Below, piece by piece: positions 3,502-63,283 of a stretch of 64,000 bases of DNA (its first letter is position 1; each line of letters opens with the position of its first letter). This stretch comes from Methylomarinum sp. Ch1-1 (GTDB lineage Bacteria; Pseudomonadota; Gammaproteobacteria; Methylococcales; Methylomonadaceae): positions 3,498,501 to 3,562,500 of the forward strand of contig NZ_CP157743.1 in NCBI RefSeq assembly GCF_030717995.2. Direction: 5' to 3'. The notes below the pieces were generated by a model. That model saw nothing but the letters and a program-made list of their open reading frames with translations. It did not search any database and had not been told where the DNA came from. A program made the position numbers and the translations under genes.

Positions 3502-3823
3502 CAGCAATTCCCATTTTCAGCAATTTAGCGATATTCACCCAGCGCCTAAATTACCCTGGAATGTAAAATGGTAATTATTCAGCGTAGTTTTATAAGAGGG
3601 AGTAGGTTATTGATTTATCGGGCTGTCTGCAACAGGACGTTGCAGTCAGAGCTTACAGGGAAGTATTCACGCGTCCCGAGAAATCAATGACCTACTGCCT
3701 AAAATCCGAAAGATACTGAATAGTTACGTAAAATGTAGCCTAAATTTAGGTGCTGGGGGTCTTGACGCCGGCATCCTCGCCAGACATCCCTACCCTCTTC
3801 GACCCTCAAATTGGGAATTGCTG
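3502..3823 (-). repeat. Miniature repeat family copy A (inverted, degenerate, carries an inner insertion)
   Basis: The ends are CAGCAATTCCCAT at 3502 and TGGGAATTGCTG ending at 3823. Inside, TCACCCAGCGCCTAAATT (3536) and AATTTAGGTGCTGGG (3742) match the reverse complement of the core seen in the other copies near 8.6, 12.7, 21.7 and 63.0 kb. The copy is split by a 157-bp element at 3571-3727. It fills most of the gap between the oxidoreductase and tusA. Confidence 0.7.
3571..3727. mobile_element. 157-bp IS66-like miniature element
   Basis: The ends GTAATTATTCAG and CTGAATAGTTAC form near-perfect terminal inverted repeats. The element is flanked by the 8-bp direct duplication GTAAAATG (3563-3570 and 3728-3735). 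Both features match the IS66 at 22518-24186, which has GTAATTATTCAG at one end and an 8-bp duplication. The interior has no coding potential but folds: arms 3602-3622 and 3675-3695 pair at 19 of 21 positions, and CTGCAAC/GTTGCAG form an inner hairpin. It is probably a non-autonomous derivative mobilised by an IS66 transposase. Confidence 0.8.
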
Positions 3824-5629: not shown

Positions 5630-5936
5630 CACCCGATAATACGCATGACGACTCAAGCGGATTACACCAATTTTGTCCAGCCATTCCCAATTTGGATAAC
5701 AAAGAGCAGCAATTCCCATATATGGACTCCTCTCCAATTGCAAGCCAAGATTGTTCAAAAATGATGTTTCCAACAGAGATCGAGATTGCCGCCATATATT
5801 CGGCCTCTTGATGAAGGTATTTATCGACCTTCGGGCCCTGATGAAGCTATCCGCGCGCTTTTATCTCTATCACTTTGCCGATTTCAAGGAATCTTCGGGA
5901 ATAACGGATTTTAAAAGCGCCGGTCTGACCTGTTGA

Positions 5937-6077
5937 ATGTCATCACTTTGAGAGTCTTGCCTCCGCAATTTGGTTGAACTCGTTTACTACAGTGTTGTTA
6001 GGGTTATCCACGCTTTGTCCACATGCGTAGAGCCCTTCAATCGTGCTCGGAGCTTGTGGGCAAAGGGTGGATAACCC
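5937..6077 (-). ncRNA. Candidate bridge-RNA-like structured region of IS110/IS1111 copy 1
   Basis: This lies in the non-coding stretch 3' of the transposase. Arms 6001-6023 and 6055-6077 form a 23-bp hairpin with two mismatches around a 31-nt loop. At 5937-5952 the segment ATGTCATCACTTTGAG matches the target repeat end (ATGTCATCAGTTTGAG, reverse complement of the copy B right end) at 15 of 16 positions. IS1111-group elements are reported to encode their guide RNA in this 3' region. Expression, exact ends and guide pairing are inferred. Confidence 0.35.
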
Positions 6078-7066
6078 GGTTTTCATCGGCTTAGGCCATT
6101 TGTGGCACGTAATCGCCGCCACGCGTTGCCAGCGCCCAAATGATCCGGGCGTTCTTGTTGGCCAAAGCCACGGCCGCTTTGTTGAAGCCTCGCCGTTCAA
6201 TCAAGCCTTTGAGCCACAGGCTCAAGGGGTCGCTCTTGTCACCGCAGTATTTCAGCACCGCTCTTGCCCCGTGAATCAAGGATGTGCGCAATTGGCGGTT
6301 GCCGCGTTTACTGATGCCCAGTAATACCTGCTTATCGCCGCTGCTGTGCTGCCTTGGCACCACGCCCAAGCTGGCCGCGTAATCTCGGCTCGAATCATAA
6401 CCCTTGCCATCGCCGACGTCAGCCGTGGCCAAAATGGCGGTCAAGGACCGATACCCGGTATGTCAAGCAATCGTCGGGCTAAGGCATTGTTTTGGCATAC
6501 TGCCGTAATTTCCCGGTCCAGAGCCCGGATCGCTTCGTCCAAGGCTTTCAGCGCTTGATACTGCTCGGCAAACAGCTTCCGGCTCAGCGTGCTGAGGTCA
6601 TTTTCCCCGTCCTCCAGAATACTGGGCAGTTGTTTTCTGAACTGATTCACGCTACGCGGCAGCACGATGCCTCGTTCAGCCAGATAACCGCGCATTTGAT
6701 TGACCAAGGCCGTGCGTTCGTCCACCTTACCTCGCCGGACACCTTGCAGCATGGCTAAGTCTTGCTGCTCAATGCCTTTGATCGCCACGCTGCGTTTGTT
6801 CGGCTGGCAGGCCGCCGTGTAAATCGCCTCGGCGTCGTTGTAATCGTTTTTATTGCCAACCACGAATGCCTTCACGAAGCGAGTATTCAACAGCACTACT
6901 TCGTGGCCCAGGGCCTGAAATGCCCGGGCCCAATGATGAGCGCCGCCGCAGGCTTCCATCGCGATCACGCTCACCGGCATCTGAGCCACAAAGGCCAACA
7001 GTTCCGACCGTTTCAATTTCTTTTTCTTTGCTTTGCCGTCTTGCATCATGAACATATGAAACACTA

Positions 7067-8380
7067 GTACAATAAACTTGAAATATATTGGATAATACAA
7101 CGATTTGAAACCAATAAAATAATCCCTTGGCACGTCCACTCCTCCCACTGACATTGAGCTCTGAACAGCAGAGCATTTTGGAAACCATTGTTCGAAGTCG
7201 CGAAGCGCCACACAGTCTGGTGCAACGTGCTCAAATCGTGTTATTGGCCCACGTCGGCAACACCAATAAATCGATCGCTCAAAACCTGGGGCTCTGTGAA
7301 GAAACGGTCGGGTTTTGGCGAAAGCGTTGGTTAGGCGACAGTATTGAGTTGGAAAAATATGCCGACCAATCAAAAAAGTTGCGCGAGGCGATCAGTCACG
7401 TGTTGGCCGACAAACCACGCGCTGGCTGCCCCGGCGTCTTTACTGCGGAGCAGATTTGCCAGTTATTGGCGCTCGCTTGTGAAACGCCTCCCGAGCATCT
7501 CAGTCATTGGACGCAACCGGCACTCGTCCGAACCGCTATTGATAGGGGGATTGTAGACACCATTTCGCTCAGCAGTATCGGGCGTTTTTTAAAATCAGGG
7601 GGATTTGAAACCGCATCGCACTAAATATTGGCTCAACCACAAAGCCGAAGATGAAGCGACCTTTCGACAAGAAGTGAGAGACGTTTGCAAGCTCTACCAT
7701 CAAGCTCAAGAGCTACACGAATCCGGTGTACATGTGATCAGTGTGGACGAGAAAACCGGTATTCAGGCGCTGGAACGGATTCATCCGGATCACCCGATGT
7801 CCAAAGGAAAACTGGAATTACACGAATTTGAGTACAAACGGCATGGCACACAAACCCTGATAGCCAATTTTGAAGTAGCGACCGGAAAAATCCTGTGTCC
7901 AACGTTGGGCGACACCCGAACAGAAAACGATTTTGTGGCCCATATCCAGGCGACCGTCGCTACTGACCCACGGCAAAATGGGTATTTATTGCCGACCAAC
8001 TGAATACGCATAAATCCGCTTCATTGGTGAAATGTGGCAGAACTCTGCGGCATCGAAGCCCGCTGGGCGAGAAAGGACAATCCGGCATTTTAGAGAACAT
8101 GGCGTCGCGCGCGGACTTTTTACAATGCACCGAGCACCGTATCCGTTTTGTTTATACACCAAAACATTGTTCATGGCTGAACCAAGTCGAGATTTGGTTC
8201 GGCATTTTAAGCCGTCGCTTACTCAAACGCGGAAGTTTCCCTTCGATTAAGGCTCTGAATCAAAGAATTCAGGCGTTCATTGCATTTTTTAATGAAACAT
8301 TGGCAAAACCGTTTCGATGGACCTATATTGGTAAGCCTCTACTTGTCTAAATTATCGAAGGTATTTCAGAAGGCGAGTAC
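7067..8380 (+). mobile_element. IS630-family element inserted in the IS110 copy
   Basis: The 1314-bp insertion starts with GTAC at 7067 and ends with GTAC at 8380. It is flanked by TA duplications (7065-7066 and 8381-8382), the target choice of IS630/Tc1-type elements. The ends align as GTAC-N8-TGAAATA-N2-TT-N-GATAA. The uninterrupted site is preserved in the second IS110 copy as CACTAGTTTTGC, which proves both boundaries. Confidence 0.93.
7127..8350 (+). pseudogene. IS630-family transposase (multiple frameshifts)
   Basis: The N-terminal part (7127-7624) is a helix-turn-helix region (VQRAQIVLLAHVGNTNKSIA). A central part in another frame (7605-8003) holds the first catalytic Asp (ISVDEKTGIQ). 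A third part (8024-8350) holds the C-terminal Glu region (NQVEIWFGILSRR). The second Asp (IADQLNTH) is encoded near 7990-8015, only after a frame change. The expected segment VAELCGIEARW lies in yet another frame, so at least three indels are present. A programmed shift at the T6A4 stretch near 7586 could explain the first step but not the later ones. Confidence 0.88.
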
Positions 8381-8886
8381 TAGTTTTGCAATATCTAAAC
8401 CCACTACGTTAAGATTCATCTCGAACTCCTCTTTGTTCTGTTTAAGTTGTTAGTAGGTGTATTGTGACACCGTTAGAGGGTGGAGAGGAGTCCATATCAT
8501 CACTTTGGCGTTCAAATAGGGCATGGGGTGTGTTTGGCGAGGATGTCGGCAGCAAGGATGCTGCCGTCAAGCCCCCCAGGGATGGGTTTACCCAGCACCT
8601 AAATTCCATGGCTACAGGACTATATTTTACATTCCAGGATAATTTAGGTGCTGGGTGAACGGCGCTCCTCGACAGACACACCCCATGCCCTAAACCCCGC
8701 AAAAATACTCAAACTGATGACATGGGAATTGCTGAACAAAGAGGGCTTGGCTGAATTTTGTCAGTAAAGCAAATAGCTAACCACTATACTGTTAGCCAAT
8801 CATGCAACGCGAAAAACGCGGGTTAAATAGAAAGTAGCTCATCGAGCTGATGTAAGCACTCATCCAATATCCGAAGCAAATAGGTC

Positions 8887-12552: not shown

Positions 12553-12633
12553 AATGTATCAATACCATTGAATTCAAAAGGCCTTAATTATACCGGAAAT
12601 CCACGTCTTTTTTGGATAACTTATATCTATTCC

Positions 12634-12887
12634 CAATTCCCATATATGGACAACAAAGAGGGCTTGGGGTGTGTTTGGCGAGAATGTCGGCAGCAAGGAT
12701 GCTGTCGTCAAGCCCCCATGGATGGGTTTACCCAGCACCTAAATTCCATGGTTACTGGACTATATGTTACATTCCAGGATAATTTAGGTGCTGGGTGAAC
12801 GGCGTTCCTCGACAGACACTCCCCGAGTCCTAAACACCGCTACAACGCTACAACGCTACAACGCTCAAAATTGGAACAGCCTCTGTT
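12634..12887 (+). repeat. Miniature repeat family copy C
   Basis: It contains the family core: GTGTGTTTGGCGAGAATG, ACCCAGCACCTAAATTCC and AATTTAGGTGCTGGGTGAAC. The left end is unusual (CCAATTCCCATATATGGAC), resembling the junction of the family end with the first bases of the IS110 copies, but the IS body is absent. The right end is degenerate and carries three tandem CTACAACG units near 12840-12864. Confidence 0.7.
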
Positions 12888-32546: not shown

Positions 32547-32804
32547 GTCGTTACCGGAAGAGAAGAAGCTGCAGATTTCGGACCGGCTCTCTGCTCACCA
32601 AAAACCGAAATCATTTAAGGTTCGATGCTACCTCATACTATTCAGATTGTAGTGCTTGATTATGGGGGCTGTCTAAGGTTTGTTGGTCTTCAGCTGCAGC
32701 TTCAGTTGCGCGCGTTCCTGTATGCGTTTTAGCAGCAATTCCCCAGGGCTACCTCATTAAATGAATGAGTGGCAAAACAGAAAATTAGCAACAAATACGC
32801 CTAA

Positions 32805-33309
32805 AGTAAGTTAAACGTTTAGGGTGTGTTAAATAACCCGCCCCGCGCGCATTGAATGCTTTTAGCCGATCCGCTGCGCGTGATCCATCTCACGGATGTG
32901 GGTAGGGTGTGCTGACGAGAGGAAGCGCACCATTTTTGATGCGCTTCACGCTGTGAAGCACATCCGAAGGCAAGGCTACATTGGCATGCAACAGCGGTTT
33001 TGGCGGCTTGCTTCGCGAAGCCGCCCTGCGATGCGCTAGGGTGTGCTGACGAGAGGAAGCGCGCCGGTTTTTGATGCGTTTCACGCAGTTCGGCACATCC
33101 GAAGGCAAGACAGTGCTTTGCGTAGGAGCGTCGCCTTTGGCGCGAAAAGAGCCATTCGGCCCGAGGGCGGGCCTCCTACGGGCAGTCACCCTTTGCGCGA
33201 AAAACAAGTAGCCGCATGTCGCTATGCGAAATGCAGGTCAACGAGATCCTGAACGAATTAACCGTGACTAGAGTAAGTTAAACGTTCGGGGCGGGTTAAA
33301 TAACCCGCC
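32805..33309. repeat. Pair of 38-bp direct repeats
   Basis: AGTAAGTTAAACGTT followed by GGG(T/C)G(T/G)GTTAAATAACCC occurs at 32805-32842 and again at 33272-33309. It flanks the 73-bp repeats described separately. Each unit contains the small inverted repeat GGGTTA/TAACCC (perfect in the second copy). Confidence 0.65.
32903..33109. repeat. Pair of 73-bp direct repeats
   Basis: TAGGGTGTGCTGACGAGAGG... through GCACATCCGAAGGCAAG occurs at 32903-32975 and 33037-33109 with scattered mismatches. Units of this type (GTAGGGTGxGCTGA...GCACC) are dispersed in many proteobacterial genomes. There is no coding potential. Confidence 0.65.
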
Positions 33310-33377
33310 TCGCCCTGAGGGATGGCGCGATATTAACCAGTCTGTTGATTCAGGTATTTTTTAATGAGGGAGCCCTG

Positions 33378-61200: not shown

Positions 61201-61664
61201 ACTCAGTTTTTAAATAGGCTCACACCCGCTGTTTTCTCTGTCGGCTGTGCTTTTTTGCCCGGCAATTAAAATGATGCAGCGAGACCGCTTGTCATTCATT
61301 GATCTTGCTGGGAAAGGAAATCTCCAGCACGATACAGCCTTCATCATCCGTTCTAGGGGCCCTGTTTCTCACCAGGCGGCCTACTGGCGCAGTACCCTGT
61401 TTCCAGCCAGATATCAAATGAATGGTCATAAAGGCAGCAATTCCCATATATGGACTCCTCTCCAATTGCAAGCCAAGATTGTTCAAAAATGATGTTTCCA
61501 ACAGAGATCGAGATTGCCGCCATATATTCGGCCTCTTGATGAAGGTATTTATCGACCTTCGGGCCCTGATGAAGCTATCCGCGCGCTTTTATCTCTATCA
61601 CTTTGCCGATTTCAAGGAATCTTCGGGAATAACGGATTTTAAAAGCGCCGGTCTGACCTGTTGA

Positions 61665-61805
61665 ATGTCATCACTTTGAGAGTCTTGCCTCCGCAATTTG
61701 GTTGAACTCGTTTACTACAGTGTTGTTAGGGTTATCCACGCTTTGTCCACATGCGTAGAGCCCTTCAATCGTGCTCGGAGCTTGTGGGCAAAGGGTGGAT
61801 AACCC
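61665..61805 (-). ncRNA. Candidate bridge-RNA-like structured region of IS110/IS1111 copy 2
   Basis: It has the same features as in copy 1: arms 61729-61751 and 61783-61805 form a 23-bp hairpin with two mismatches, and ATGTCATCACTTTGAG at 61665-61680 resembles the target. Function is inferred from the IS1111 layout. Confidence 0.35.
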
Positions 61806-61818
61806 GGTTTTCATCGGC

Positions 61819-62830
61819 TTAGGCCATTTGTGGCACGTAATCGCCGCCACGCGTTGCCAGCGCCCAAATGATCCGGGCGTTCTTGTTGGCCAAAGCCACG
61901 GCCGCTTTGTTGAAGCCTCGCCGTTCAATCAAGCCTTTGAGCCACAGGCTCAAGGGGTCGCTCTTGTCACCGCAGTATTTCAGCACCGCTCTTGCCCCGT
62001 GAATCAAGGATGTGCGCAATTGGCGGTTGCCGCGTTTACTGATGCCCAGTAATACCTGCTTATCGCCGCTGCTGTGCTGCCTTGGCACCACGCCCAAGCT
62101 GGCCGCGTAATCTCGGCTCGAATCATAACCCTTGCCATCGCCGACGTCAGCCGTGGCCAAAATGGCGGTCAAAGGACCGATACCCGGTATGTCAAGCAAT
62201 CGTCGGGCTAAGGCATTGTTTTGGCATACTGCCGTAATTTCCCGGTCCAGAGCCCGGATCGCTTCGTCCAAGGCTTTCAGCGCTTGATACTGCTCGGCAA
62301 ACAGCTTCCGGCTCAGCGTGCTGAGGTCATTTTCCCCGTCCTCCAGAATACTGGGCAGTTGTTTTCTGAACTGATTCACGCTACGCGGCAGCACGATGCC
62401 TCGTTCAGCCAGATAACCGCGCATTTGATTGACCAAGGCCGTGCGTTCGTCCACCTTACCTCGCCGGACACCTTGCAGCATGGCTAAGTCTTGCTGCTCA
62501 ATGCCTTGATCGCCACGCTGCGTTTGTTCGGCTGGCAGGCCGCCGTGTAAATCGCCTCGGCGTCGTTGTAATCGTTTTATTGCCAACCACGAATGCCTTC
62601 ACGAAGCGAGTATTCAACAGCACTACTTCGTGGCCCAGGGCCTGAAATGCCCGGGCCCAATGATGAGCGCCGCCGCAGGCTTCCATCGCGATCACGCTCA
62701 CCGGCATCTGAGCCACAAAGGCCAACAGTTCCGACCGTTTCAATTTCTTTTTCTTTGCTTTGCCGTCTTGCATCATGAACATATGAAACACTAGTTTTGC
62801 AATATCTAAACCCACTACGTTAAGATTCAT
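61819..62830 (-). pseudogene. IS110-family transposase, copy 2 (two frameshifts)
   Basis: The start MNLNVVGLDIAKLVFHMF at 62830 is intact. One base is lost near 62577 (T4 instead of T5), after VVGNK. A second is lost near 62506 (CCTT instead of CCTTT), before GIEQQDLAML. The rest, to QMA at 61819, is open, including GIGPLTAILA, where copy 1 is broken. Combining both copies gives one uninterrupted ~338-codon ORF. Confidence 0.92.
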
Positions 62831-63283
62831 CTCGAACTCCTCTTTGTTCTGTTTAAGTTGTTAGTAGGTGTATTGTGACACCGTTAGAGGGTGGAGAGGA
62901 GTCCATATCATCACTTTGGCGTTCAAAAAGGGCATGGGGTGTGTTTGGCGAGGATGTCGGCAGCAAGGACGCTGCCGTCAAGCCCCCAGGGATGGGTTTA
63001 CCCAGCACCTAAATTCCATGGTTACTGGACTATATTTTACATGCCAGGATAATTTAGGTGCTGGGTGAACGGCGCTCCTCGACAGACATACCCCATGCCC
63101 TAAACACCGAAAAAATGCTCAAACAGGGAATCGCTGGCGCCTACCGAGTACCCGTCATATATGACATGATTGAGTACCGGTACAGCACCGTTATTCTAAT
63201 GGCGGGTAAAGACATAAAAAAATACCTAAGAATTTATGCGCTTGCTAAAGCAGACAACTCGTCAGATGAAAATGGATGCAGTA

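What the first reader, a model, noticed from the sequence alone, without database searches (positions are those of the whole stretch)
5707..8734. Two IS110/IS1111-type elements inserted at the same base of a miniature repeat end
Copy 1 (5720-8497) and copy 2 (61448-62908) are both bordered by CAGCAATTCCCAT on the left and CATCACTTTGGCG on the right. Uninterrupted repeat ends elsewhere (33378; reverse complement of 8708-8734) read CCCAT directly followed by (GT)CATCAGTTT. So the elements use one fixed position inside the terminal repeat of another mobile family. IS1111-group elements are known to choose repeats such as REP or attC sites; a MITE terminal repeat is an unusual target and offers a safe, self-spreading landing site.
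Basis: partly seen in the sequence, partly recalled or inferred. Interest (0 to 1): 0.72.

Follow-up and report, generated by a model that had tools for sequence, protein, structure and literature searches.

The report
RNA-guided insertion element in MITE ends
A bacterial jumping gene that appears to choose its landing site with a guide RNA has homed again and again on the tips of another, much smaller repeated element, and short leftovers at other tips suggest that it also leaves; the general kind is known, but here guide, target and leftovers can be read in one genome.

Summary
A 1.47-kb IS1111-group insertion sequence has 12 full copies, all at one base pair inside the terminal repeat of an abundant ~235-bp MITE. 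Copies without a substitution between them lie in clearly different MITE copies, so most insertions are independent. After the transposase gene lies a conserved RNA fold whose loop holds two guides matching both halves of the MITE end; in homologs from related methanotrophs these positions change together with their other targets. At least 33 MITE-type ends carry short pieces of one IS end, 31 of them joined at inner TGs; five relatives that have such ends but no near-identical IS show none (0 of 293). Ten copies have a G guide and sit at C-type ends; the most diverged copy has U and sits at a G-type end, as do all 33 such scars. IS1111-group elements in transposon ends (Tn21) and in a MITE (Coxiella) are published: a new, well-resolved member of a known kind. 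The scars bear on the open question of the donor site's fate.

The parts
5698..5706 (.). 9-bp target duplication AACAAAGAG left of MITE 1 (second copy 8735-8743)
5707..5718 (.). outer 12 bp of the left terminal repeat of MITE 1, CAGCAATTCCCA
5719..8502 (-). IS1111-group element, copy 1 (transposase gene on - strand), split by an IS630-type element
5855..5921 (-). predicted target-binding loop of the guide RNA, copy 1: stem arms 5912-5921 and 5855-5863; guide ATTCCC within 5893-5905; guide CAAAGTG within 5867-5881
5935..5952 (-). conserved stretch with GTGATGACATTC, resembling the IS's own left end (candidate donor guide; inferred)
6091..8419 (-). transposase gene of copy 1, broken by the IS630-type insertion and a 1-nt frameshift
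7067..8380 (+). IS630-type element inside copy 1 (TA at 7065-7066 and 8381-8382); its transposase frame is in pieces
8503..8734 (.). rest of MITE 1
8715..8722 (.). 8-bp scar TGATGACA (TGTCATCA on the other strand) in the right end of MITE 1
61435..61446 (.). outer 12 bp of the left terminal repeat of MITE 2
61447..62913 (-). IS1111-group element, copy 2 (1,467 bp; most copies with an open transposase frame are 1,469 bp)
61583..61649 (-). predicted target-binding loop of the guide RNA, copy 2
61819..62830 (-). transposase gene of copy 2, frameshifted by two 1-nt deletions relative to intact copies
62914..63137 (.). rest of MITE 2; right end decayed, no target duplication seen

Best explanation
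The element is an IS1111-group insertion sequence whose non-coding RNA, encoded downstream of the transposase gene, folds into a loop with two guide stretches. In the direction of the transposase gene the target is CCAAAG|TGGGAATTGCTG, the end of a MITE. One guide (ATTCCC) can pair with the strand carrying GGGAAT; the other (CAAAGTG) can pair with the opposite strand of CAAAGTG. The transposase exchanges strands at a shared TG core, so the IS enters the MITE end at one base pair and in one orientation. In a circle the joined ends would create a promoter for transposase and RNA. Shown here from sequence: fixed site, independent insertions, guide-target covariation, conserved RNA fold. Inferred: binding of RNA and protein, the circle, the strand exchange, and that the short IS remnants at other MITE ends are traces of IS loss, mostly at inner TGs. 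The MITE suits the IS because it offers well over a hundred copies of the target.
For: 12 of 12 full copies at the same position. L001-L006 have no substitution between them over ~1,467 bp, yet in cleanly cut pairs (L001, L003, L004, L005) the MITE bodies differ by 2.7-6.8%. L002 and L009 lie in MITE bodies identical to empty copies L066 and L049. MITEs carry 9-bp duplications, 28 of 34 parsed with at most 1 mismatch. Pfam DEDD_Tnp_IS110 and Transposase_20; NCBIfam 'IS110 family RNA-guided transposase', 319 bits against a cut-off of 140. Homologous elements in relatives lie in other targets, mostly with TG at the junction. Guide-target matches beat permuted pairings: first guide 0 of 100,000 (11 elements), second guide 124 of 100,000 (9), both 5 of 100,000 (9); leaving out the two own elements, first guide 6 (9 elements) and both 195 of 100,000 (7). 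RNA consensus of 11 elements: 10 of 37 pairs kept through changes on both sides, guides unpaired and opposite each other. At the joined IS ends TATGAT in 9 of 9 elements, TTGCAA 17 bp before it in 8 of 9.
Against: Guide matches are partial in several homologs (of 6 scored positions each: L138 first guide 3, L137 first 3, L077 3 and 2, L157 second 2, L074 second 3). Two of five M. fluvii copies lack TG at one flank (L134, L135). One of the two copies with the U guide, L008, lies at a C-type end (probably recombinant: MITE body 0 of 223 different from L004, one shared outer flank, no target duplication). No suffix scar lies at an A-type end, which the U guide would pair with best (23 G, 0 A; 46 G and 21 A intact ends; p 0.001). 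The RNA of the single sequence is only weakly more stable than shuffles (z -1.6, 13 of 200 as stable). No experiment.
Confidence: 0.88

Rival explanations
1. The IS entered one MITE once and then spread as cargo of that MITE, or by segmental duplication.
For: All 12 copies lie at the left-type MITE end in the same orientation; L004 and L008 share a MITE body and one outer flank.
Against: IS copies are identical while their MITE bodies differ; IS-bearing MITEs are scattered among empty ones, two of them identical to empty copies of different subfamilies; a 58-bp IS remnant lies in a right MITE end (L015); scars are found at both ends.
Confidence: 0.06
2. The T..CATCA ends are the original MITE target and the IS inserts between T and CATCA.
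For: 33 ends carry such bases.
Against: 147 exact ends lack them; five relatives with 293 such ends have none; some ends carry longer prefixes of the IS, up to TATATGGACT; homologous IS in other targets carry the same terminal bases TGATGA.AT.
Confidence: 0.03
3. The main mechanism holds, but the scars were not made by the IS recombinase; they come from microhomology-mediated deletion between the IS ends, independent of transposition.
For: Every suffix junction has microhomology: 3 bp for the 3-bp scar, 4 or 6 bp for the 8-bp scars, 1-2 bp for the rest. Some junctions are not at a TG (TCATCA, TATATCA; prefix types TATATGG, TATATGGACT). Deletion junctions were not seen for IS4321 in culture although circle reads were abundant (PMC5001619, passages).
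Against: 31 of 33 suffix scars fall exactly at the two inner TGs of the IS end, and the class with shorter microhomology (20 ends) is commoner than the class with longer (11 ends); but scarred MITEs may have multiplied, so ends are not events.
Confidence: 0.4

Closest known systems
[quoted passage not shown]
   Same: IS1111-group element aimed at the end of another transposon
   Different: There the host is a larger transposon; here a short MITE with well over a hundred ends. Seen only through citing papers; the original is not held
Coxiella burnetii IS1111 in QMITE2 (PMC5896051, passages and section 9)
   Same: 20 of 21 copies lie in one MITE family, 10-20 bp from its 5' end
   Different: There the target is described as a GTAG REP within the MITE; no guide or scars are mentioned in the passages read. 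Here the target spans bp 12/13 of the terminal repeat
seekRNA-guided ISEc11, ISPa11, ISKpn4, ISPst6 (PMC11187229)
   Same: Subterminal repeats, 7/3-bp extensions, downstream non-coding RNA, top-strand guide before bottom-strand guide
   Different: Targets are a short linear site, REP or attC; here a MITE end; nothing tested in the laboratory here
IS621 bridge RNA system (IS110 group)
   Same: Two target guides in an internal RNA loop, dinucleotide core, distant recombinase homology (8wt6, E 0.00013)
   Different: RNA in the left end, CT core, only 2-3-bp subterminal repeats (PMC11208160, PMC11208158, passages)

Membership tests
IS1111 group of the IS110 family | DEDD transposase with Transposase_20 domain, 330-350 aa | tested here: met
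   337 aa; PF01548 and PF02371 above cut-off; NF033542; motif G--P----SG read in the translation as GVVPRQHSSG
IS1111 group of the IS110 family | subterminal inverted repeats with 7-bp left and 3-bp right extensions | tested here: met
   TGATGAT-ATGGACTCC...GGAGTCCAT-ATA; perfect 16-bp inverted repeat ATATGGACTCCTCTCC
IS1111 group of the IS110 family | long non-coding region downstream of the transposase gene | tested here: met
   372 nt
IS1111 group of the IS110 family | fixed target, one orientation, no target duplication | tested here: met
   12 of 12 copies; only the TG is shared by target and IS end
IS1111 group of the IS110 family | top-strand guide precedes bottom-strand guide in the RNA | tested here: met
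   order in the alignment; permutation test
IS1111 group of the IS110 family | circular intermediate with junction promoter | tested here: inconclusive
   promoter-like hexamers at the joined ends, 9 of 9; the circle itself not testable
IS1111 group of the IS110 family | RNA co-purifies with the transposase and is needed for movement | not testable with these tools
   needs the laboratory
MITE | short, many copies, terminal inverted repeats, target duplication | tested here: met
   ~235 bp, 158 ends by one anchored pattern, 9-bp duplications in 28 of 34 parsed
MITE | mobilised by an autonomous relative | tested here: inconclusive
   two longer intervals between ends held no transposase; no wider search made

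The most novel reading that the evidence does not exclude
The genome holds a fossil record of an RNA-guided IS chasing its host repeat: an older lineage entered and left G-type MITE ends, leaving footprints where the donor site was rejoined by the recombinase at alternative TG cores (a product that two published studies of IS1111-group elements looked for and did not detect); later one base of the bottom-strand guide changed so that it fits C-type MITE ends, and the IS burst again into those.
Probability: 0.4. Interest if true: 0.72.

Novelty: new member of a known kind. Interest (0 to 1): 0.52.

Why it matters
It gives a natural system in which guide, target, target variants and leftovers of an IS1111-group element can be read in one genome, with homologs that have been redirected naturally. 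PMC11187229 leaves open how the circle forms without a rejoined target (section 14), and PMC5001619 counted thousands of circle reads and no deletion reads for IS4321; the scars described here say what rejoined donor sites may look like and at which registers to search for them.

Tried and rejected
Rejected: spread as MITE cargo or by segmental duplication; T..CATCA as the original site; chance placement. Led nowhere: an autonomous partner of the MITE; Rfam, two hits at E 0.5-0.6 far below their gathering scores; plasmids, 130 of 72,556 records with a match, none covering 80% of the query; papers on imprecise excision or footprints of IS110-family elements: no title or abstract in the listings reports such scars (full texts mostly not read).

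Rows dropped: one search left out L008 (recombinant), L134-L136 and L140 (same element as L133), L075 (same site as L138); L137 and L076, with one flank, entered only the first-guide test. One search parsed 34 MITEs with both ends from L031-L072 and L213-L252; loci with one end or none were dropped, and L213-L244 were chosen because they carry CCCAT ends, so that sample is rich in scars. One search left out MITEs under 200 bp and L006, L010, L011. In one search the MITE bodies of L002, L006, L010 and L011 were not cut cleanly, so only clean pairs are quoted; the 28 apparent differences between L012 and L001-L006 come from aligning across the IS630-type insert (100% over both parts). One search scored 40 of 385 candidates; searches scored at most 6 candidates a genome.

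Full report
What is there. The window is part of a 4.77-Mb genome in 3 contigs, probably a methanotroph, judged from the closest transposases found in Methylomonas and Methylicorpusculum (inference). The element in the finding is an insertion sequence, 1,467-1,474 bp in its 11 uninterrupted copies, with a 337-codon transposase gene in intact copies. A twelfth copy (window copy 1) is split by an IS630-type element. Seven of the 12 have an open transposase frame; both window copies are broken.

The target. Every copy lies in a MITE with terminal repeat CAGCAATTCCCA. The MITE is about 235 bp, with shorter types, and is flanked by 9-bp duplications (28 of 34 parsed copies with at most one mismatch). 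A pattern anchored in the MITE finds 158 ends. Without the anchor, exact intact ends number 80 of C type (CCCA-CTTTG) and 67 of G or A type (46 G, 21 A by my count of the list). Against these the IS starts at the T after CCCA and ends with CATCA; the target is CCAAAG|TGGGAATTGCTG in the direction of the transposase gene. Diverged fragments of the IS (45-193 bp) exist too: L015 lies in a right MITE end, L014 has one end at a decayed MITE end, L016 has another target.

Independent insertions. L001-L006 have no substitution between them over about 1,467 bp; in cleanly cut pairs among L001, L003, L004 and L005 the MITE bodies differ by 2.7-6.8%. The two window copies lie in MITEs that differ at 11 of 223 positions. 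In a tree of 33 MITE bodies the IS-bearing ones are scattered; L002's body is identical to that of empty L066, and L009's to empty L049. L004 and L008 share MITE body and one outer flank but not the other, and L008 lacks a duplication, which looks like recombination.

The guide RNA. The 372 nt after the transposase gene contain a block conserved in 11 elements, two from this genome and nine from relatives. Its consensus fold has a stem closing an internal loop with a small hairpin at its tip; 10 of 37 pairs have changes on both sides. Two variable stretches lie opposite each other in that loop. The first tends to be the reverse complement of the right target half and the second a copy of the left half: in the window element ATTCCC and CAAAGTG; in M. 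fluvii TAGCGCA and TAAGGTG for the target TAAGG|TGCGCTA. Permuting guides among targets reached the observed score 0 times of 100,000 for the first guide (11 elements), 124 for the second (9), 5 for both (9); without the two own elements 6 for the first (9) and 195 for both (7). Some homologs match poorly, and two of five M. fluvii copies lack TG at one flank. The order of the two guides is that reported for the IS1111 group (PMC11187229: abstract, introduction, the first two results sections, sections 8, 9, 13 and 14, and passages read).

Circle promoter. Joining the two IS ends gives TATGAT as best -10 in 9 of 9 elements, in 8 of 9 with TTGCAA 17 bp before it. A circle with a junction promoter is the known intermediate of the group (PMC11187229).

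Scars. Thirty-three ends carry short insertions equal to the last bases of one IS end: TCA 20, TATCATCA 4, TGTCATCA 7, TCATCA 1, TATATCA 1 (that pattern allows only C or G before TTTG). In the MITE-anchored search 33 of 158 ends begin CCCAT: 23 are such suffix scars, all at G-type ends; 9 carry the first bases of the other IS end (TA 5, TATAT 1, TATATGG 2, TATATGGACT 1) and 1 is a substitution. TGTCATCA matches the end of the most diverged copy, L011 (TGATGACAT). The IS end TGATGACATGG has TG at offsets 0, 3 and 8, and 31 of 33 suffix scars are what joining at offset 3 or 8 would give; joining at 0 restores the MITE and cannot be seen. The junctions also have 3 bp (offset 3) and 4 or 6 bp (offset 8) of microhomology, so recombinase and simple deletion are not told apart. 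Five relatives have 293 such ends and no scar; they hold no near-identical IS, though G010 has one homolog in another target and the others fragments (at most 6 candidates scored a genome). Scarred MITEs may have multiplied, so ends are not events; the spread of scar types over MITE subfamilies and over both ends points to several events.

A one-base guide change. Ten copies, both window copies included, read CAAAGTG in the second guide and lie at C-type ends; if each had chosen at random among intact ends (80 of 147 C type) the chance is 0.0023. L011 and L008 read CAAATTG. L011 lies at a G-type end; L008 at a C-type end, but it is probably recombinant. All 33 suffix scars lie at G-type ends, none at C-type (Fisher p 2.7e-10 against intact ends; 1.9e-9 with the 23 anchored scars), and 15 of 16 parsed MITEs with a right-end scar keep an untouched C-type left end. 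Against a simple story, no anchored suffix scar lies at an A-type end, which the U guide would fit best (p 0.001). The guide of the elements that made the scars is therefore not known.

What is known. IS5075 and related IS target the ends of Tn21-like transposons (PMC8269217, abstract and passages; the original paper is not held). In Coxiella 20 of 21 IS1111 copies lie in the MITE QMITE2 (PMC5896051, passages and section 9; review PMC10969869, passages). So an IS1111-group element living in transposon ends or in a MITE is not new. PMC5001619 (passages) reports 5,248 circle reads and no deletion reads for IS4321, and PMC11187229 did not detect the rejoined target for ISEc11. I found no report of scars like these in the listings of four searches of the held library.

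Verdict. The finding is real and its mechanism well supported from sequence; it is a new member of a known kind. The scars and the one-base guide change are the parts that a specialist would want to follow.

Noticed in passing
window 12630-12670: A MITE remnant whose end continues as TATATGGAC, a prefix of one IS end: another scar-like trace.
   Followed up: partly
window 3502-3823: A ~320-bp element with a similar terminal repeat (CAGCAATTCCCA) and a partly different interior, perhaps a second MITE type.
   Followed up: no
window 32734-33370: A separate repeat (CAACAAATACGCC...) that also flanks several MITE copies elsewhere in the genome.
   Followed up: no
L006 / L252 (G000:C2:3869900-3873200): A MITE carrying the IS appears itself inserted in the end of an older IS1111 relative (duplication ATGATATGG): three nested layers.
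   Followed up: partly
L014, L016: Decayed IS1111 relatives with one end at CAGGCAGGA|TG of another repeat; the other end of L014 is at a decayed MITE end.
   Followed up: partly
L002, just after the transposase gene; query positions 282-358: A 77-nt imperfect inverted repeat (76% self-match) before the guide RNA block; function unknown.
   Followed up: no
L001, L005, L006, L010 transposase genes: Indels of one base that break the frame; real decay or sequencing error.
   Followed up: no
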